From assembly GCA_021324685.1 (NCBI GenBank), contig JAJPIQ010000043.1, positions 1-64,000 of the forward strand: a DNA stretch of 64,000 bases, in the 5' to 3' direction. Source of the stretch: Bacteroidota bacterium. Lineage in GTDB: Bacteria > Bacteroidota > Ignavibacteria > Palsa-1295. The notes below the pieces were generated by a model. That model was given only the letters and a program-made list of their open reading frames with translations. It was not told where the DNA came from and made no database searches. This document shows, piece by piece, positions 17,154-26,314 of the stretch (positions are counted from its first letter, which is position 1; every line of letters starts with the position of its first letter). The translations under genes and the position numbers were made by a program.

Positions 17154-18179
17154 TTAGTTATCCCGCACGTCGATCGCTCCATTCGCACCGAAAAGGACGG
17201 CATGGTGCGGGTTTACATAGATAATATCGTTCCAATTGCCGGGACCGACGGTGGTCGGAGTCCAGGTCGTGCCACCGTCGGTCGATTCGATGACGGTTCC
17301 GTTCTGCCCCACCGCCGTGACCGTCCCCGCGCCATTGGTGGCGATGTGAAACAGACCGCTTGCGATCGTTTTGATGGTCGCCCAGGTATGGCCACCGTCC
17401 AAGGTCGAAAGAATATATCCGGTCGTCGCCGTGCCGGTAATCGGTGCGACCGCGACCGCGAAGCCGGTGGTCGCGCTGGTGAAGGTCGTGCTATAGATCA
17501 GCGAGTTGGGCTGGTCCGAAGAGCCGGGATGCCACGTTGTGCCGCCGTCCGTCGTCCAGTAATCGACGCCATAGCGACCGGTCGCAACACCATGCATTCC
17601 ATTCGAGCCCGGAATATTGAAGTCCATATTGTAAATACCGCCGTGCGTTGTGAAGACCGGATACCAGGTTTGTCCTCCATCGGTCGTCTGGCAGATCGAG
17701 CCGGAGGGACCGGCATAAACATCGGATGTACCGATGAATCCGGTATTGCGGTTGGTGAAGTACATCGATCGGATAAGATCCGATTGCGGCACGTAGCTGG
17801 CGTCCATGGGTTGCCAGGTATAGCCGCCATCGGTCGTTTTCGAAATGTCCCGCTGGTCCCCGGCGACGATGCCGTTTTGTGCATCGAAGAAGGAGATCCC
17901 ATAAAGATTGCCGTCCAGTGACCCGCTATAGCACGGAGCCGGGGAACCTGTGCTCCAGGTCTTTCCCGCATCGTTCGTAACTAAAACGGTCCCGTGCTGT
18001 CCGGTCACGAAGCCCGCCGTCGCATTCACGAATTGCCCGACGATCAGCGATTCCGGGCTCCCCGAATTGACGGACGTCCACGACCCGCTCGAGGTGGGCG
18101 GTGTTCCCGGAGAAGTGACATTCCGGCAGCTTGCGAACGCCAGTAGGGCGATCGCACAAGAAAAAAGACGAAGTTTCAT
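17154..18179 (-). CDS. YCF48/photosystem II assembly factor-like repeat lipoprotein
   Basis: Signal peptide ending LLAFASCRN; repeated TTDGGxTW motifs. Confidence 0.75.
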   Translation of the reverse strand: MKLRLFSCAIALLAFASCRNVTSPGTPPTSSGSWTSVNSGSPESLIVGQFVNATAGFVTGQHGTVLVTNDAGKTWSTGSPAPCYSGSLDGNLYGISFFDAQNGIVAGDQRDISKTTDGGYTWQPMDASYVPQSDLIRSMYFTNRNTGFIGTSDVYAGPSGSICQTTDGGQTWYPVFTTHGGIYNMDFNIPGSNGMHGVATGRYGVDYWTTDGGTTWHPGSSDQPNSLIYSTTFTSATTGFAVAVAPITGTATTGYILSTLDGGHTWATIKTIASGLFHIATNGAGTVTAVGQNGTVIESTDGGTTWTPTTVGPGNWNDIIYVNPHHAVLFGANGAIDVRDN

Positions 18180-18193
18180 GGGTTGGTTGTTAA

Positions 18194-18221
18194 AAAGTTA
18201 AGATGCAAAAGTTAAAATGCA
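18194..18221. repeat. 14-bp tandem direct repeat just upstream of the YCF48-like gene
   Basis: AAAGTTAAGATGCA / AAAGTTAAAATGCA (one mismatch), 15 bp upstream of the ATG at 18179. Confidence 0.75.
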
Positions 18222-18290
18222 AGTGAATCGAACGACAGCGTTTCGGAACGAAAGAACTATTATTTCTCGCGTACCGCAACGTGATGAAGG

Positions 18291-20021
18291 TTATCTCTCG
18301 CGGACATCGATCGCTCCGTTCGCACCAAAGAGAAGGGCCCGGTGCGGTGTCAGATAGAGGACGCAGCGCCAGTCATTGCTTCCGGCTATGCTCTGGGACC
18401 ACGTCGTGCCGCCATCGGTCGATTCGACGATAGTTCCGCCGGAGCCGACCGCTGTAATCGTTCCAGCACCGTTAGCCGCGATGCCGATTAGCCCTCCCGC
18501 AATCGTTTTTATCGTCGTCCAGGAGTGGCCGCCATCCGAGGTCGAAAGAAGATATCCGGTCATAGGGGTCCCGGTCAGCGGAGCAGAAGCGACGGCGAAG
18601 CCGGTCGTCGCACTCGTAAAGGTGGTTTTATAGATGACGGAATTCGGCTCGTCAGAAGAACCCGTGTGCCAACTCGTGCCACTGTCCGTCGTCCAATAAA
18701 CGACTCCATCGCGGCCGGTCGCCACGCCGGACCTGTTATTCGTGAAGGAATTAAATCCGATATTATAAATACCGCCGTTCGTGTAAAAGATCGGGTTCCA
18801 TGTCTGCCCGCCATCGTTGGTCTGGCAGATCGAGCCGGAGGGCCCCGCCAAATAGTCGGAAGTTCCGATAAAACCGGTCGTGCCGCTGGTGAAGCACATG
18901 GAACGAATGAGGTCGCTCTGCGGGAGGCTGCTGGCATCGATCGTCTGCCAGGTAAAGCCGCCATCCGCCGTTACGGAAATATCGTGCTGATCGCCGGCGA
19001 CGATCCCATTCTGCGCATCGAAGAATGTGAGGCCGTAGATATTGCCGGTGAGCGATCCGGTGAAGATCGGAGCCGAACCTCGCACGGACCACGTCGCTCC
19101 GGAATCGTTCGTTGCCAAAACGACTCCGTACTCGCCACCGACAAAGCCGATCTTTGAACCGACGAATTGTCCGATCACGAGATTATCGCTTGTGACGGCG
19201 CTGACCGGGGTCCAGCTCGAATCCGTACCGGGCGGCGGCGTTACGACCGTATCGGTGCGCTCGTACCAGCCGCTTTCGTGGAAGCGCGACCCAACATCGA
19301 CAGGATCGATAGCTTTGTTGAGAATTAAAACATCGCTGAGGTCGCAATCATGTCCTTCGATCGTGACAGGGCCGTCATTATTAAGTTCCGGCGTCATGGT
19401 CGGCTCGGGCTGATATTGATCGAGTGCTGAATCGATATACAGATAGACCCCTTGATGAGCGACAACGACAGCGGTGATGAGATGCCATGAATTGGCGGGT
19501 ATGGAACGTCCACCTCGCATCTCAAAATGACCGCGGGTATCGTCTGTGGCTTGAAAATCGGCAACGCTAAGCGTATTGCCTGATGAGTCGGAAGTTTGAG
19601 TAATTCCCAGACGGTAGCCGATTCGGCTCTTGTCTACAGGTTGTTTGCGAACGATGTCAAAATCCCATGCTTGTTCAATATCCACCCATGCCGAAATCGT
19701 GTAAGAATCGTTACCCGTAAAATTCAGTCCTGAAGTATTGGAAACGACCAAACCGGAAATATCCGATAGCGTATCTGGAAAATGCAGCGCGTGACCGGCT
19801 GTCCCAAAACGATTTTTTGCATATCCATACCCAGGGCCGAAGTTAAGCGAACCGTCATGCCCATTCCCACTGACGTCTTTGAGGTTCCCATCGAAGGTCC
19901 AATAGGCGACCGTATCCGAAACGGCGGGCGTCGGATTCGGCGGCCCGGTGAGATGATCCCGGCAGCTTGCGAGTCCGAGCAAAGCCGCGGCGGAGAAGAA
20001 AAGAGCAATGTATCGTTTCAT
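18291..20021 (-). CDS. LamG-like plus YCF48-like repeat lipoprotein, paralogue of 17154..18179
   Basis: Signal peptide MKRYIALFFSAAALLGLASCRD; LamG-like VAYWTFDGNLKDVSGNGHDGSL; YCF48-like TADGGFTWQ repeats closely matching the neighbour. Confidence 0.75.
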   Translation of the reverse strand: MKRYIALFFSAAALLGLASCRDHLTGPPNPTPAVSDTVAYWTFDGNLKDVSGNGHDGSLNFGPGYGYAKNRFGTAGHALHFPDTLSDISGLVVSNTSGLNFTGNDSYTISAWVDIEQAWDFDIVRKQPVDKSRIGYRLGITQTSDSSGNTLSVADFQATDDTRGHFEMRGGRSIPANSWHLITAVVVAHQGVYLYIDSALDQYQPEPTMTPELNNDGPVTIEGHDCDLSDVLILNKAIDPVDVGSRFHESGWYERTDTVVTPPPGTDSSWTPVSAVTSDNLVIGQFVGSKIGFVGGEYGVVLATNDSGATWSVRGSAPIFTGSLTGNIYGLTFFDAQNGIVAGDQHDISVTADGGFTWQTIDASSLPQSDLIRSMCFTSGTTGFIGTSDYLAGPSGSICQTNDGGQTWNPIFYTNGGIYNIGFNSFTNNRSGVATGRDGVVYWTTDSGTSWHTGSSDEPNSVIYKTTFTSATTGFAVASAPLTGTPMTGYLLSTSDGGHSWTTIKTIAGGLIGIAANGAGTITAVGSGGTIVESTDGGTTWSQSIAGSNDWRCVLYLTPHRALLFGANGAIDVRER

Positions 20022-20109
20022 AACGTTTATGTTTGGTAGCATGAAGACGTTCGGCCGAAACGAAGCCTGACACGGGAGACCCATTTTGAGGAAAGAACCG
20101 CGTTTCTTT

Positions 20110-20682
20110 CTACCCGGCAGGGTTATACAGCCTTTGCTGGAGTTCGATCGCTACGTAGTGAAAAATAACGGAATGGACGCTCTCGGAAGTACACATATCG
20201 TCCAACGGGACATGGACGCTGGTCGCGACGATTTGCTTTAATTTTCCACCTGCAAAACCGGTGACCCCGACCGTGTGAAGTCCATTGGCATTGGCCCATT
20301 CGATCGCTCCCACCACGTTCGGGCTGTTGCCGGAGCCCGAAATTGCCACGACGATATCCCCTGGCCGGGCATACGTGCGTAACTGCTGTTCGAAGATCGA
20401 AGCATATCCTTCATCGTTGCCGTAGGCCGTCATGAGAGCGACATTATCGGTAAGGGAAAGCGCCCGGAGCCGTTTTTTTTGCTCCAGAGACTGCAGCGTT
20501 CCCTTCGCCAGGTCGTTGGCAAAATGCGATGCATTGGCGGCACTGCCGCCATTGCCAATGACGAAAACAGTTCGGTCATTTTCATAGGCATCGATTAAAA
20601 TTTCGAGCAGACGCGAAATTTCCGCATGATCGAGGCTGGCCAGGGACTGATTAAAATACGATGTATATTCTTCGAAATTCAC
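20110..20682 (-). CDS. gmhA: Phosphoheptose isomerase (SIS domain)
   Basis: 190 aa; VFVIGNGGSAANASHFANDLAKG, GDIVVAISGSGNSPNVVGAIEWA. Confidence 0.88.
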   Translation of the reverse strand: MNFEEYTSYFNQSLASLDHAEISRLLEILIDAYENDRTVFVIGNGGSAANASHFANDLAKGTLQSLEQKKRLRALSLTDNVALMTAYGNDEGYASIFEQQLRTYARPGDIVVAISGSGNSPNVVGAIEWANANGLHTVGVTGFAGGKLKQIVATSVHVPLDDMCTSESVHSVIFHYVAIELQQRLYNPAG

Positions 20683-20867
20683 GGCAAATAGGCAGGGTTC
20701 TTTAGAAATGGGTCGGAAGACGGCTAACTACGATGAATACGCTTTCAGTTCGCGCTGGTTAGCAGCTATTCATGTTAATTTTTGCAATTTTGGCCTTTCG
20801 TTTGAGAGAGGTTTTAGGTAGAGGCAAGAAGAATTTATTAATCCTCTGGTCATAATATGGAAATGAT

Positions 20868-21050
20868 ATGAAACGATCTACTACCTCGAACGACGCGGAA
20901 TCGATGAACCGCGTCGACCGTATACTTAAGCTTCAAAATGCAGCGACTCATCTGGAAATCCTTATGAAACGGGTTTCCGATATCGAAGAAGCCGAACAAA
21001 AACAGGAAGAAGAAAAACGTCCGGGTCGAAAACTCAGCCATAACGGGTGA
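20868..21050 (+). CDS. Small hypothetical coiled-coil-like protein
   Basis: 60 aa, charged (DIEEAEQKQEEEKRPGRK), intergenic and not antisense to a recognised CDS. Confidence 0.4.
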   Translation: MKRSTTSNDAESMNRVDRILKLQNAATHLEILMKRVSDIEEAEQKQEEEKRPGRKLSHNG

Positions 21051-21072
21051 TCGGTCATCACGGATCTTTTGG

Positions 21073-21711
21073 TCACGTTCCCGACAGTGTTTTAAGTCGA
21101 TCGTTCAAATGGTCGCGTCCGCCGACAACTTCAATCAGCGGCCCGTGATCGCCGGACCGGACGACACTCACCGATCCGACGGGGCACCCGAGTCGATACC
21201 GAAACCGGCCGACATCGATCCCAAGTAGAGAACAGAGAATAATTCGGATCGTCGCTTTGTGCGAAACGATCAGGACCTTTCCGTCCCCGCATTTCCCCCG
21301 AATTTCTTGGATTACTCCCAGAGCCCGCACGGCAACGTCAATGGCCGTTTCACCGCCCGTCGGCGGATACCATGCCGGATCGGCCGTCCAGCTTAAATGC
21401 TCGTCGTGGTATTCACGCTCCACCTCTTCGACCGTTTTAGATTCCCATTTGCCATAGGCAATTTCCGTTAAACCGTTTGCAAGGATGGGAACGATGTTCT
21501 GCTGTTTCGCGATGAGATCGGCGGTAACCTTTGTGCGCGCGAGCGGACTCGAATATATTTCCGTCCAGCGCGTTCCTTTATAATATTCGGCAAACGCCTG
21601 CGCCATTTCGAGACCTTCGGGCGTCAGCGGCGCGTCCGTTCCGGAACCGCAGAACCGGTTTTGTCGGCTGAACGGGGTCTGACCGTGACGAAGAAAATAA
21701 AGCTCGAGCAT
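21073..21711 (-). CDS. Histidine phosphatase family protein
   Basis: 212 aa; LYFLRHGQTPFS RHG motif and VLIVSHKATIRIILC. Confidence 0.9.
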   Translation of the reverse strand: MLELYFLRHGQTPFSRQNRFCGSGTDAPLTPEGLEMAQAFAEYYKGTRWTEIYSSPLARTKVTADLIAKQQNIVPILANGLTEIAYGKWESKTVEEVEREYHDEHLSWTADPAWYPPTGGETAIDVAVRALGVIQEIRGKCGDGKVLIVSHKATIRIILCSLLGIDVGRFRYRLGCPVGSVSVVRSGDHGPLIEVVGGRDHLNDRLKTLSGT

Positions 21712-22701
21712 TCACCAACGGTAACGGCGCTGGTTGAAAATGATCGTGGCGCCGAAATTATCGAGCATGACGGGCATCTGGCGATATTCCGATAGTGCGT
21801 CACGCACTTTGGCCTGGAACTCCGGCTTGACATAGAGCAATAAGAATCCCCCACCCCCCGCGCCGGCCACTTTTCCGCCGATCGCTCCGGCAGCTCGTGC
21901 ACGAGCATACATTTCGTCGATTTTAGAATTGGTAATACCGGAAGCGAGACGTTTTTTGAAGGCCCAGTTCTCGTCGAGCACTTCGCCGATTTCATCGAAC
22001 CGCCGGCCGCGGATCGCCGCCTCTATTTTCTTTCCGAGACCGTGGATGGCTTGCAAATGGCTCCGGTTCTGTCCGGTTTTGTCCTGCTGTTCTTTAAGGA
22101 TCGAAGCGGCCTGACGCGTAACGTTCGTAAAAAACAGCATGAACCGGCCGCCGAGATCGTGCCGCTCGCGCTCGGTAAGTTCCAGGCGCTCCGTTGTTAC
22201 CCGCTCCGAGCCATGGAAGGTGATCGAACAGAGGCCACCATGCGCGGCGATATATTGGTCCTGTTTCCCGATCGGTTTTTTGAGGACTTCGATCTCGATC
22301 ATGCACGCTTCTTCAGCGAGCTGATCGTGCGTGACCTGGCGGCCACGAAAGGTGTACATCGCGTTCAGGAGGCCGACGGTCAGGCTGCTCGAAGAGCCTA
22401 ATCCGGAACCCTCGGAAGGAATATCGGCAAAGGTCGCAAGCTCAAAACCGTTTCGAAGTCCCGCCACAATTCCGGCTTCCCGCACCAGTTCGTGCTGGAT
22501 CTCGGAAATGTCATCGACGATTTCTTTTCGGGCGGCATAGTTCAAATAGATCTTCGAGTCGAAGCGCTCTTTGATAAGGACGTACATGTACTTATCGATC
22601 GCCGTGGAGACGACAAAGCCGTCGGAATCTTTATAATATGCGCGCAGGTCCGTCCCGCCACCCGCGAGCGAAATCCGTAAGGGAGTTTGGCTGATCAGCA
22701 A
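21712..22701 (-). CDS. GHMP kinase, HddA-like
   Basis: 329 aa; MLISQTPLRISLAGGGTDLRAYY, PSEGSGLGSSSSLTVGLLNA, GGKVAGAGGGGFLLLY. Confidence 0.85.
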   Translation of the reverse strand: MLISQTPLRISLAGGGTDLRAYYKDSDGFVVSTAIDKYMYVLIKERFDSKIYLNYAARKEIVDDISEIQHELVREAGIVAGLRNGFELATFADIPSEGSGLGSSSSLTVGLLNAMYTFRGRQVTHDQLAEEACMIEIEVLKKPIGKQDQYIAAHGGLCSITFHGSERVTTERLELTERERHDLGGRFMLFFTNVTRQAASILKEQQDKTGQNRSHLQAIHGLGKKIEAAIRGRRFDEIGEVLDENWAFKKRLASGITNSKIDEMYARARAAGAIGGKVAGAGGGGFLLLYVKPEFQAKVRDALSEYRQMPVMLDNFGATIIFNQRRYRW

Positions 22702-22726
22702 GTTCTAAAGGCGATAATCGATTTTT

Positions 22727-23161
22727 TTATCCAGGCGCTCGTTCGAGCTCGGCCCGTATTTTTCGCGCGATTTCTACCATTTCGCTTTCCGGAATCTCGC
22801 GAAGGATTTTCGGATCGGGAAGTTCCCCATGCCCATCGTCCTCGAAACGAGGGACCAAATGGACGTGCGCGTGCGGCACACCGATGCCACCCGTATCGGC
22901 GATAATCCAGTCGGTCTCGAACACGTTCTGGAGTGCTTTCGCAATCCGCTGGACCTTCATAAAAAGAAAGCCCAGGTCGGCTTTATCCATATCCCACACC
23001 CATCGATAATGGTGCTTCGGAATAAGCTGGGTATGTCCGGCATTGAGCGGATATTTATCGAGAAATCCCAGAAACTCGGAGTCTTCATAGATGATCTCGT
23101 GCGGATTCTCTCCGCGAACGATATCGCAAAAGACGCAGGGGAGCGGCGAGGAAGCTGGCAT
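22727..23161 (-). CDS. HIT family protein
   Basis: 144 aa; CVFCDIVRGENPHEIIYEDSEFLGFLDKYPLNAGHTQLIPKHHY, VPHAHVHLVPRF. Confidence 0.93.
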   Translation of the reverse strand: MPASSPLPCVFCDIVRGENPHEIIYEDSEFLGFLDKYPLNAGHTQLIPKHHYRWVWDMDKADLGFLFMKVQRIAKALQNVFETDWIIADTGGIGVPHAHVHLVPRFEDDGHGELPDPKILREIPESEMVEIARKIRAELERAPG

Positions 23162-23197: not shown

Positions 23198-24331
23198 TTA
23201 AAATACGTACCCTGCTCCGAGCGCCCATTCGCGATGTTCGAGCGGCGAATCGGTATTCGTCCATTGATAATCCGCCTTCAGGATGAGCTCGTTCATCGGT
23301 TTGAACGCAACGCCACTAACGAGTGCCCGATGGATCGTGGACACGGTGGGGCCATCGCCCAAAATATCTTCGCTGCTATCCGAGGTATATTCGCGGAACG
23401 CATACTCTTCAAACCGGCTAAAGGCCCACAGTTGGGAACGCATTTTCGTAAAGGAAAACAGGTTGAAGGCCAGTTCGCCGTAGCCTCCGACGACCTGCGC
23501 AGGAACGTCTGGCAAGACCATTCCCGTGTTCACGTACGCTCCTTCCGCACGGAACCGCCAGGCATTCGTCTCATATTGCACATCGAGGTCCCCGAGCTCG
23601 AACAGGTTCGAAAAAATCGTCGTGGGTCCCCGCTCGAGGTATCCCGACGCACCGATTTCCAGGCCTTCCGCCGGGGTGAAGGTCAACTTGCCGGAAAGTG
23701 CGGGCCGCGACACATTGCTGCCGGCCAACGTATCGCTGGTCTCGGCCGCAGCCCACCCTTCCTGTTTTGCGCCATCGAGCGTTTGCATGGTACTGTTTTG
23801 AGTCTGGAGGCCTTCCGAAAGGTAGAGTTGATAGGCCAGGGCTTTCGAAAGATTCCCATAGACTCCGGTCCCGATTTCCGCCCACGTCGTGGGAACGACC
23901 GTTTGGTCGAAGAGCGGACGCAGGACACTAAAGTAGGAATTGGGTTCGTGCGTCTGGTTCATGATACCGATCGGCAGGACGAGAAGTCCGCCGCGCCAGC
24001 CGATGCGTTCGTTCGCGCGATATTCCAAATACGCTTGTTCAATTCCGATCTCTCCGCCGGCGCCGCCCTCGATCTTGACGTGCTCGATCTCGGTCTCGGA
24101 ACGAAACGTCCAGCGCGAATCGAAGGTGTGGTCCAGATAGATCACAAAGCGAGAAATATCGAGGCGCGGCGGATTACCGTTCGAGAAATTTTGGTAATTC
24201 ATCTCGCCATAACCGCCGACATACGTCGACGACTGCGCTCGCGTGCGAGCGGCGAGGAAGGTAAAGAAAACGAAAAGAATGCTATTAAGACTTAGTCTTA
24301 ATAAGTATCGAAAGCGAACAGGATGAAGCAT
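23198..24331 (-). CDS. Outer-membrane porin-like protein
   Basis: 377 aa; signal peptide MLHPVRFRYLLRLSLNSILFVFFTFLAARTRAQS; beta-barrel pattern with terminal WALGAGYVF. Confidence 0.7.
   Translation of the reverse strand: MLHPVRFRYLLRLSLNSILFVFFTFLAARTRAQSSTYVGGYGEMNYQNFSNGNPPRLDISRFVIYLDHTFDSRWTFRSETEIEHVKIEGGAGGEIGIEQAYLEYRANERIGWRGGLLVLPIGIMNQTHEPNSYFSVLRPLFDQTVVPTTWAEIGTGVYGNLSKALAYQLYLSEGLQTQNSTMQTLDGAKQEGWAAAETSDTLAGSNVSRPALSGKLTFTPAEGLEIGASGYLERGPTTIFSNLFELGDLDVQYETNAWRFRAEGAYVNTGMVLPDVPAQVVGGYGELAFNLFSFTKMRSQLWAFSRFEEYAFREYTSDSSEDILGDGPTVSTIHRALVSGVAFKPMNELILKADYQWTNTDSPLEHREWALGAGYVF
24283..24303. promoter_or_regulatory. Candidate Fur-family operator, intragenic in the porin signal-peptide region
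   Basis: TATTAAGACTTAGTCTTAATA: perfect 10-1-10 palindrome identical to 26260..26280. Confidence 0.7.
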
Positions 24332-24374
24332 GGATACGATTATAAATGAAAGTTAGAAAAGGAAGTAGAAAAAA

Positions 24375-25583
24375 TCAGGGTCGCCAGTCGGCGATGAAAA
24401 GGTTCATATTCTGCGAATGAGAACCGTTCCGGCACGAAACGAAGACGAGTTTCGAGCCATCGTGGGTGAACATCGGGAAACCGTTAAAGCCACCGCCGTC
24501 CGTGATCCGATCGATGCCGCTCCCATCTTTATCGACCATAAAAAGATCGAAGTTCTGCCCGTTCGGATCGAGTTCGTTGGACGAAAAAACGATATGCTCT
24601 CCGTCTGGCGCCCATGCGGCCTGACCGCTCATCGCATGGAAATGCGTCACCGGGTGCACGTGGGACCCATCGGAGTCCATCACATAAATTTCAAGTTCCG
24701 TCGGATGAACGGACCCCTGAGCGAGGAGTTTTCGATATTCCGGCAGGTCTTTGGCCTCGATCCGAGCGGCACAAAAGAGAATTTGCTTCCCATCGGGCGA
24801 ATATCGAGCGCCGCCGTGATAGCCGGGTTCGTGCGTGAGTTGCTGAACGTCCGATCCGTCCGTGTTCATCGTAAAGAGTTCCGGATCTCCCGACCGGGTG
24901 CTCGTAAAAACGATACGATCGCCCAGGGGCGAAACGGCCGGTTCGCCGTCATACATCGTATCGTTCGTGAGGCGGCCCCGGAGCGTCCCGCTCGTATCCG
25001 CAACATATAGATCGTATCCTTTAAAGAGCGGCCACCCGTGAGCATAATCGAGCCGTGGACATCCGGGCCCGACCGCCATGGTCGATGAAAAAAGGAGGTG
25101 GGCGCCATCGGGAAGGAAATACGGACTCGAGCATCCCCCTTCCCCATTCGAAATACGCTTCACATAATTCCCTGCGAGCGGCATCATGTAGATCTGGTCG
25201 CAGGACGCAACGTTCGTTCCACGGGCCTCGAACGCAAGGAATTTATCGTCCGCGCTAAGGGCCGCGCCCGTATTCACCCCTTCGGACGTGAGTTGGCGGA
25301 TGTTCTTAAGATGTGTTTCGCCGCGATAGTAGCACGAGTCGGGAAGCAGCACCGCTCCGCGGAACTGTTTCGAGCTGTCGATCGCGGCGTTATCGTGGAT
25401 CGAAAATTGGTATACCGGAGCAATATTCAGGGTCTTGAGCGTGAAAACCGGCTTTGAGGTATCGGCTGGTTTTGCCCTCGACGTATCGGTAACCGGCGAG
25501 GTGCGTTGCGCGAACGACCTCCCCACAAGGGCCGTGAGAAGAAAAAGGATCGAGAGAAGCGAGCGAAAAAGGGTGCGGTTCAT
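24375..25583 (-). CDS. TolB-like PD40/WD40 beta-propeller protein, exported
   Basis: 402 aa; repeated SPLGDRIVFTSTRSGDPELFTMNTDGSD, YSPDGKQILFCAAR, APDGEHIVFSSNE. Confidence 0.82.
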   Translation of the reverse strand: MNRTLFRSLLSILFLLTALVGRSFAQRTSPVTDTSRAKPADTSKPVFTLKTLNIAPVYQFSIHDNAAIDSSKQFRGAVLLPDSCYYRGETHLKNIRQLTSEGVNTGAALSADDKFLAFEARGTNVASCDQIYMMPLAGNYVKRISNGEGGCSSPYFLPDGAHLLFSSTMAVGPGCPRLDYAHGWPLFKGYDLYVADTSGTLRGRLTNDTMYDGEPAVSPLGDRIVFTSTRSGDPELFTMNTDGSDVQQLTHEPGYHGGARYSPDGKQILFCAARIEAKDLPEYRKLLAQGSVHPTELEIYVMDSDGSHVHPVTHFHAMSGQAAWAPDGEHIVFSSNELDPNGQNFDLFMVDKDGSGIDRITDGGGFNGFPMFTHDGSKLVFVSCRNGSHSQNMNLFIADWRP

Positions 25584-25653
25584 AGATAAAACAATGAAAT
25601 GCTTCCAGCGGATGAACGGTCCGCCGAACGAACGACCGTAAACATCAGGCGCA

Positions 25654-26256
25654 TCACGATCCGTGCTGTTCTTTGATCGTTTTTAATGGAAGGACACCGC
25701 TGGAACCCGGGGAACCGGTGACGGCGGAGAGCTGCGGTTGTGCCGAATGAAGAGCGTGCCGCCCATTGGACGAAACCGACGTGCGGCATTCCAGGCATAT
25801 CCCGAAGATCTGGAACGAATGATACATAGGCGAAAAGCCGACCTTTGCACAGGCATCCTCCTGCAATCGTTCCACACGCGAGTTCTCGAACTCGACGATT
25901 TTCCCGCATTTCGTGCAGACCATGTGGTCGTGGTGCGGACGGTCGGTCGTTTTCTCATACTGGGCATGACCCTGTGAGAACCGGTAGCGCGAAACCAGGC
26001 CGCATTCGTGAAGCAAGGCCAGCGTTTTGTAAACCGTCGCGCGCGATACCTTCGAGCCGTTGTTCTTTAAATAGATAAACAAGTTATCGGCATCGAAATG
26101 GTCGTTCCACGCAAGCACGGCATCGAGGACATCGAACCGTTCCGGTGTGATACGGTACTGCCCTTCCTGCAGGAACTTGCGGAAGTGCTCGTGCGGACGG
26201 TTCGAAATCGCCGTCCCCAGCGAAGAGATCCCTTTTTTCTTTACAGCGGATGCCAT
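25654..26256 (-). CDS. Fur-family metalloregulator
   Basis: 200 aa; NGSKVSRATVYKTLALLHECGLVSRYRF, DRPHHDHMVCTKCGKIVEFE, HSFQIFGICLECR. Confidence 0.9.
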   Translation of the reverse strand: MASAVKKKGISSLGTAISNRPHEHFRKFLQEGQYRITPERFDVLDAVLAWNDHFDADNLFIYLKNNGSKVSRATVYKTLALLHECGLVSRYRFSQGHAQYEKTTDRPHHDHMVCTKCGKIVEFENSRVERLQEDACAKVGFSPMYHSFQIFGICLECRTSVSSNGRHALHSAQPQLSAVTGSPGSSGVLPLKTIKEQHGS

Positions 26257-26259
26257 GCT

Positions 26260-26280
26260 TATTAAGACTTAGTCTTAATA
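26260..26280. promoter_or_regulatory. Candidate Fur-family operator, autoregulatory position
   Basis: TATTAAGACTTAGTCTTAATA located 3 bp upstream of the Fur-family start codon. Confidence 0.8.
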
Positions 26281-26314
26281 CAAAGCCGGCTCTTCTTACG
26301 TTCCGAGATCCAAC

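What the first reader, a model, noticed from the sequence alone, without database searches (positions are those of the whole stretch)
24283..26280. Identical 21-bp palindrome at a Fur-family gene and inside the signal-peptide codons of a porin
TATTAAGACTTAGTCTTAATA (perfect 10-1-10 dyad) occurs twice and I found no other full copy in the window: 3 bp upstream of the Fur-family ATG, and 29-49 bases into the porin CDS. The simplest reading is one regulator controlling itself and a metal-linked porin. The sequence differs from the classical GATAATGATAATCATTATC Fur box. In the porin the site is intragenic unless translation starts at a non-ATG codon after it, suggesting roadblock-type control or a double role of the DNA.
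Basis: partly seen in the sequence, partly recalled or inferred. Interest (0 to 1): 0.7.

Follow-up and report, generated by a model that had tools for sequence, protein, structure and literature searches.

The report
Iron-regulator binding site inside porin gene
Two identical DNA switch sites in an uncultured bacterium most likely bind its only iron-sensing repressor (Fur); one site controls the repressor's own gene and the other lies inside the first codons of a membrane pore gene, an arrangement kept in five related species.

Summary
TATTAAGACTTAGTCTTAATA is a perfect 10-1-10 dyad at 24283-24303 and 26260-26280. The 3.47-Mb genome holds only one further good copy, in front of an Nramp (mntH) gene.

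The box is very probably the operator of the adjacent Fur, the genome's only Fur-family protein. It lies just upstream of fur in all 12 family genomes with a fur orthologue. Outside the family it drifts towards TTTAGAtTnAaTCTAAA and lies at the fur promoter in 11 of 15 Fur-bearing genomes checked. That form resembles the EMSA-tested Riemerella Fur box ATTTAGAATTATTCTAAAT.

Target genes point to iron rather than manganese: FTR1 follows fur in relatives, feoAB has the box in two species, and a boxed MntH occurs only in the four genus genomes lacking both FeoB and FTR1.

The porin copy is truly intragenic: five species keep it 24-42 nt downstream of the only usable start codon, in rare codons. 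The mntH copy is not; the conserved GTG start follows it.

Mechanism: Fur-metal represses initiation at fur and mntH. At the porin, last gene of a fur-PD40-porin unit, it probably acts as a downstream block (inferred). No binding or expression data exist.

The parts
26260..26280 (-). Fur box 1 (operator at the fur promoter), perfect 10-1-10 dyad
   Evidence: Exact match; conserved just upstream of fur in 12/12 family genomes carrying fur and at the fur promoter in 11 of 15 Fur-bearing genomes of other families checked
24283..24303 (-). Fur box 2 inside the signal-peptide codons of the porin (bases 29-49 of the ORF)
   Evidence: Exact match; same place, 24-42 nt from ATG to box core, in five species; rare-codon test
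25654..26256 (-). fur, ferric uptake regulator family (200 aa), the only Fur-family gene in the genome
   Evidence: PF01475 E=2.6e-30; one match genome-wide; best PDB match Fur 6d57/4ets
24375..25583 (-). PD40/TolB-like beta-propeller protein between fur and porin, same strand; accompanies fur in relatives
   Evidence: PF07676; gene order in relatives
23198..24331 (-). outer-membrane porin (377 aa), 16-strand barrel, N-terminal signal helix
   Evidence: AlphaFold2 model pLDDT 77.7, pTM 0.74; Foldseek to porins, OprP 2o4v E=1.2e-11
26300..26304 (-). GGAAC element, 19 nt upstream of the box in the fur promoter; likely -35 of an ECF-type promoter (inferred)
   Evidence: GGAAC at this exact spacing in 11/12 family fur promoters, GAAAC in the twelfth
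26276..26281 (-). GTATTA, putative -10 overlapping the left arm of box 1 (inferred)
   Evidence: GGAAC-N18-GT(A/C)TTA in fur, mntH and feoA promoters; in the window only at fur

Best explanation
The palindrome is the operator of the Fur protein encoded beside it, a lineage variant of the Bacteroidota Fur box. When intracellular iron is sufficient, metal-loaded Fur binds the 7-1-7 core at three places in this genome: over the -10/start region of its own promoter (autorepression), over the promoter of mntH (which in this clade stands in for FeoB/FTR1 as the Fur-controlled inner-membrane importer), and inside codons 10-17 of the porin gene. Because the porin is the last gene of a co-directional fur-PD40-porin unit, the internal site most likely stops RNA polymerase arriving from the fur promoter, or from a promoter just before the porin, so that fur can be transcribed at a basal level without making porin. 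Shown by sequence and conservation: the sites, their positions, their restriction to these three genes, the link to fur, and conservation of the porin site as DNA. Inferred: binding, iron as effector, repression, and the roadblock step (about 0.5 on its own).
For: Box upstream of fur in 12/12 family genomes with fur. Outside the family a genome-wide hit lies at the fur promoter in 11 of 15 Fur-bearing genomes, while 9 genomes without a Fur match have 11 hits against 34 for the control pattern. The outgroup form resembles the Riemerella Fur box bound by Fur in EMSA (PMC5609570). Only one Fur-family gene in the genome. The same three orthologous sites (fur, porin, mntH) occur in G000, G004, G005 and G006. 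Iron genes share the box or the operon: feoAB in G001 and G002, FTR1 directly after fur, FMN_bind and ApbE in the operon, imelysins in G010. Porin site: five species; the only start before the box is the ATG; codons TTA AGA CTA AGT CTT AAT have joint probability 5e-7 under window usage, and a full core arises with probability 3.7e-5 from synonymous recoding. Precedent: mutating intragenic boxes of the Fur-family regulator Zur in B. subtilis raised expression 4- to 9-fold, though deleting zur did not (PMC4324032).
Against: No binding, metal or expression data. No conserved promoter was found upstream of the porin, and the GGAAC element of the other sites is absent there, so how the porin is transcribed is unresolved. 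feoAB in G003 has no recognisable box in the stretch held. The porin box is decayed in G001 (4 mismatches, left arm) and absent in G009. The importer swap is probably a single event in one clade, so it is weak as independent evidence. In the Zur precedent the effect did not depend on Zur. All genomes are drafts or MAGs.
Confidence: 0.82

Rival explanations
1. The regulator is a manganese sensor (Mur-like) and the porin and MntH form a manganese uptake pair, as MnoP and MntH do in Bradyrhizobium.
For: A third site sits at an Nramp/MntH gene; MnoP is a manganese porin in Bradyrhizobium (PMC9334652).
Against: In relatives the same box precedes feoAB, and FTR1, FMN_bind, ApbE and imelysin genes share the operon or box; boxed MntH appears only where FeoB and FTR1 are both absent. 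Two other Nramp genes in the genome have no box.
Confidence: 0.15
2. The porin box acts on a conventional promoter just upstream of the porin ATG (block of promoter clearance), not as a roadblock for transcripts coming from fur.
For: There are 43 bp between PD40 and the porin; G000 has a TATAAT a few bases before the ATG.
Against: The TATAAT is not conserved among the five species and no other promoter element is.
Confidence: 0.35
3. The porin starts after the box at a non-canonical codon, so the box is an ordinary operator in a leader.
For: The mntH box looked intragenic too, but its conserved GTG start lies after the box. G001 has an ATG inside a decayed box.
Against: No shared in-frame ATG, GTG or TTG lies after the box in the porin, and starting there would remove the basic n-region of the signal peptide.
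Confidence: 0.06
4. The palindrome is a mobile repeat (REP-like) or an RNA hairpin/terminator, not a protein operator.
For: Perfect dyad, present twice within 2 kb.
Against: Only three copies genome-wide, all at conserved places across diverged species; no U-run follows; no exact copy in viral contigs.
Confidence: 0.03

Closest known systems
Riemerella anatipestifer Fur and its box ATTTAGAATTATTCTAAAT (PMC5609570)
   Same: Palindromic Fur box with the same spacing around one central base; the TTTAGAtT form is found at fur promoters of other families of this class
   Different: In the window's family the arms read TTAAGACT; the regulated genes listed there are different ones
Classical Fur box GATAATGATAATCATTATC / 7-1-7 TGATAATnATTATCA
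   Same: 7-1-7 geometry with T-n-A-n-A-n-T half-sites (own knowledge of the consensus)
   Different: Half-site TAAGACT instead of TGATAAT
Mur / MnoP / MntH manganese regulon of rhizobia (PMC9334652)
   Same: Fur-family regulator, Nramp importer and outer-membrane channel as targets
   Different: In relatives the box also serves feoAB, and FTR1 and flavin genes share the operon, pointing to iron; metal response not tested
Intragenic Zur sites of Bacillus subtilis (PMC4324032)
   Same: Operators of a Fur-family regulator inside coding sequence; mutation of the box raised expression 4- to 9-fold there
   Different: The effect was not zur-dependent there; here the site is a perfect box conserved in five species
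OprO/OprP/DcaP-type 16-strand porins (PF07396)
   Same: Predicted fold (OprP 2o4v, OprO 4rjw, DcaP 6eus); a gammaproteobacterial homologue hits PF07396
   Different: The window protein itself has no PF07396 hit; its relatives neighbour FMN_bind plus PepSY_TM or ApbE genes
Flavin-based iron reduction/assimilation gene clusters (PMC8238504)
   Same: FMN_bind and ApbE genes beside an iron transporter (FTR1) in relatives
   Different: A porin and a PD40 protein are part of the operon; in the window genome FMN_bind and ApbE do not follow the porin

Membership tests
Fur (ferric uptake regulator) | FUR domain above the curated cut-off | tested here: met
   PF01475 105.5 bits, cut-off 23.1
Fur (ferric uptake regulator) | Metal-site residues H-x-D-H, downstream E and H, CxxC | tested here: met
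   RPHHDH, CxxCGKIVEFEN and YHS align with Campylobacter and E. coli Fur; D110, H111, E122, H146, C114 and C117 invariant in ten relatives
Fur (ferric uptake regulator) | Regulated genes are iron-uptake genes and fur itself | tested here: met
   Box or operon: fur, feoAB, FTR1, imelysin, FMN_bind/ApbE in relatives
Fur (ferric uptake regulator) | NCBIfam equivalog cut-off for a ferric uptake regulator (a naming threshold, not a biological feature) | tested here: not met
   Best NF006999 85.5 bits vs cut-off 146; it is the best-scoring family, so this says distant, not other
Fur (ferric uptake regulator) | Metal-dependent DNA binding to the box | not testable with these tools
   Needs EMSA or footprinting
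Mur (Mn-responsive Fur) | Mn-dependent control of mntH/mnoP as the main regulon | tested here: inconclusive
   mntH is a target, but feoAB and FTR1 in relatives argue for iron; metal response not testable
PerR | Asp ligand where Fur has Glu (KIVDF vs KIVEF) | tested here: not met
   E122 is invariant in relatives; the Asp in PerR is from memory
Porin_O_P (PF07396) | Profile match over cut-off | tested here: not met
   No Pfam hit for the window porin; homologue L148 38 bits, cut-off 20.9
Porin_O_P (PF07396) | 16-strand porin barrel fold | tested here: met
   16 predicted strands; OprP, OprO and DcaP among the best fold matches, TM 0.57-0.66 by query length; trimer not tested

The most novel reading that the evidence does not exclude
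A Fur operator conserved inside signal-peptide codons works as an elongation gate within the fur operon: an autorepressed fur promoter stays leaky enough to supply Fur, while the internal box stops those transcripts before the porin, so the same 21 bp must both encode a working signal peptide and hold full operator strength.
Probability: 0.4. Interest if true: 0.6.

Novelty: new variant of a known kind. Interest (0 to 1): 0.45.

Why it matters
It gives a testable Fur box and a very small (three-site) Fur regulon for an uncultured branch of the Bacteroidota/Ignavibacteriota group, for which no Fur motif was found in the papers searched. It shows one importer replacing others (FTR1, FeoB, MntH) under the same operator. 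It is also a clear case of an operator kept inside coding sequence across diverged species, a class of site that motif surveys usually discard.

Tried and rejected
Mn-only (Mur) reading: weakened by feoAB and FTR1 in relatives. The mntH box as a second intragenic site: rejected, because in G004, G005 and G006 the frame opens only at the conserved GTG after the box. Further own-genome sites: C34:27150 (3 mismatches; the control pattern gives more) and C7:23889 (ribosomal protein genes) treated as chance. GGAAC as a general upstream element: 10 GGAAC vs 8 GTTCC in the window's upstream regions, so no sense-strand excess that would make it a general -35. A promoter for the porin: none conserved. 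PDB sequence search with the porin: no hits. Literature searches for a Fur motif in this lineage found none.

Full report
What is there. The 21-mer TATTAAGACTTAGTCTTAATA is present exactly at 24283-24303 and 26260-26280, with no further match at up to three mismatches in the window and none in shuffled sequence. The gene order on the minus strand is fur (26256-25654), a PD40/TolB-like propeller protein (25583-24375) and the porin (24331-23198). In the whole genome (3.47 Mb, 89 contigs) the only other good site is TATTGAGACTGAGTCTTAGTA in front of an Nramp/MntH gene.

The regulator. The protein is a Fur-family member, the only one in the genome, closest by sequence among solved structures to Campylobacter-type Fur entries 6d57/4ets, with the HHDH, CxxC and KIVEF pattern. 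It falls below the NCBIfam equivalog cut-offs, with ferric uptake regulator models scoring best, so it is a distant Fur.

Link between box and regulator. All 12 family genomes in which fur was found carry the box a few bases before the fur start. Twenty-three family sites give 28 bits of information, with T1, T2, A4, G5, A6, A10, T12, C13 and T14 of the 17-bp core invariant. Outside the family the box becomes TTTAGAtTnAaTCTAAA. In a genome-wide scan its hits fall at the fur promoter in 11 of 15 Fur-bearing genomes checked, whereas nine genomes without a Fur match show fewer hits than the control pattern, 11 against 34. This outgroup form resembles the Riemerella Fur box ATTTAGAATTATTCTAAAT, for which Fur binding was shown by EMSA (PMC5609570). 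The window's box is therefore best read as a lineage variant of the Bacteroidota Fur box. The 7-1-7 geometry is the same as in classical Fur boxes (own knowledge).

Which metal. In relatives, fur is followed by an FTR1-type iron permease, PD40, porin, an FMN-binding protein and ApbE, in full in G001 and G009 and in part elsewhere, a combination linked to iron assimilation (PMC8238504). The box precedes feoA-feoB in G001 and G002, and outer-membrane protein/cytochrome c genes in five family genomes, with two imelysin genes next to them in G010. FeoB is found only in G001-G003. FTR1 is found in G001 and G007-G012. The boxed MntH orthologue (79-88% identical) is found only in G000, G004, G005 and G006, exactly the genus genomes that lack both FeoB and FTR1. 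The simplest reading is that MntH has taken over as the Fur-controlled divalent-metal importer in one clade. Manganese is not excluded.

Promoter anatomy. In fur promoters of the family, GGAAC stands exactly 19 nt before the 21-bp box in 11 of 12 (GAAAC in the other). In mntH and feoA promoters it stands 6 nt before the box in 5 of 6. Both spacings give GGAAC-N18-GT(A/C)TTA, so the box would overlap the -10 and start site of a promoter of ECF type (the sigma assignment is inference). In outgroup families the fur box directly follows a TTGACA-N17-TATATT-like promoter, for example L037. These positions fit repression by blocking initiation.

The porin site. In G000, G003, G004, G005 and G006 the box core starts 24-42 nt into the ORF. 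In each case the only canonical start between the last upstream in-frame stop and the box is the ATG, and no downstream start is shared. The porins of the other four are 51-63% identical to the window's. The codons TTA AGA CTA AGT CTT AAT are mostly rare in this 55% GC sequence: joint probability 5e-7 under window usage, and 3.7e-5 that a synonymous recoding of LRLSLN gives the full core. The DNA, not only the peptide, is therefore under constraint. By contrast, the apparent intragenic position of the box in mntH is an ORF-calling effect: the conserved start is the GTG after it.

The porin protein. The model is a 16-strand barrel (pLDDT 77.7, pTM 0.74) matching solved porins, with OprP, OprO and DcaP among the matches. 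Relatives in Gammaproteobacteria sit beside FMN_bind and PepSY_TM genes. An iron-related outer-membrane pore is likely; its substrate is unknown.

Mechanism. Metal-loaded Fur represses fur and mntH at their promoters. At the porin no promoter element is conserved upstream, and the GGAAC element is absent. Since the porin is the last of three co-directional genes, a block to RNA polymerase coming from the fur promoter is a reasonable mechanism. Roadblocking by an operator-bound repressor is established for LacI (PMC4132739). Mutating intragenic boxes of the Fur-family regulator Zur raised expression in B. subtilis, although in that study deleting zur had no such effect (PMC4324032). I put about 0.5 on the roadblock step and 0.82 on the Fur-operator explanation as a whole.

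Limits. The genomes are drafts or MAGs; named members are recorded as Ignavibacteriae, Ignavibacteria or Bacteroidetes MAGs. Nothing biochemical was tested. The importer swap is likely one event. feoAB in G003 lacks a visible box in the stretch held.

Noticed in passing
L091, L095, L097, L098, L099 (family genomes G008, G012, G007, G010, G011): Paired Fur-type boxes 27-36 nt apart in front of an outer-membrane protein (ANRRHFTY; DUF6662 in G010) with a small c-type cytochrome alongside; a TATATTTG-like stretch resembling the Bacteroidota -7 element lies beside the pair.
   Followed up: partly
L096 (G007:C5:408041): A Fur-type box upstream of a di-haem cytochrome c peroxidase/MauG-like gene (PF03150).
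   Followed up: partly
L144, L147, L148, L151 and others: Homologues of the porin in Gammaproteobacteria sit beside FMN_bind and/or PepSY_TM-like genes, a possible outer-membrane partner of flavin-based iron reductases.
   Followed up: partly
class-level genomes G014, G017, G027, G036, G042, G045, G048, G054, G060: Near-complete genomes of the same class with no match to this Fur at E<=1e-8.
   Followed up: no
window 17154-20084: Two adjacent paralogous secreted proteins with similar C-terminal halves (WT-TDGG-like repeats), one carrying an additional N-terminal domain.
   Followed up: no
window 20110-23161: SIS-type isomerase, phosphatase, GHMP-kinase-like and HIT genes next to the porin; a similar block follows the fur region in relatives (L066, L137).
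   Followed up: no
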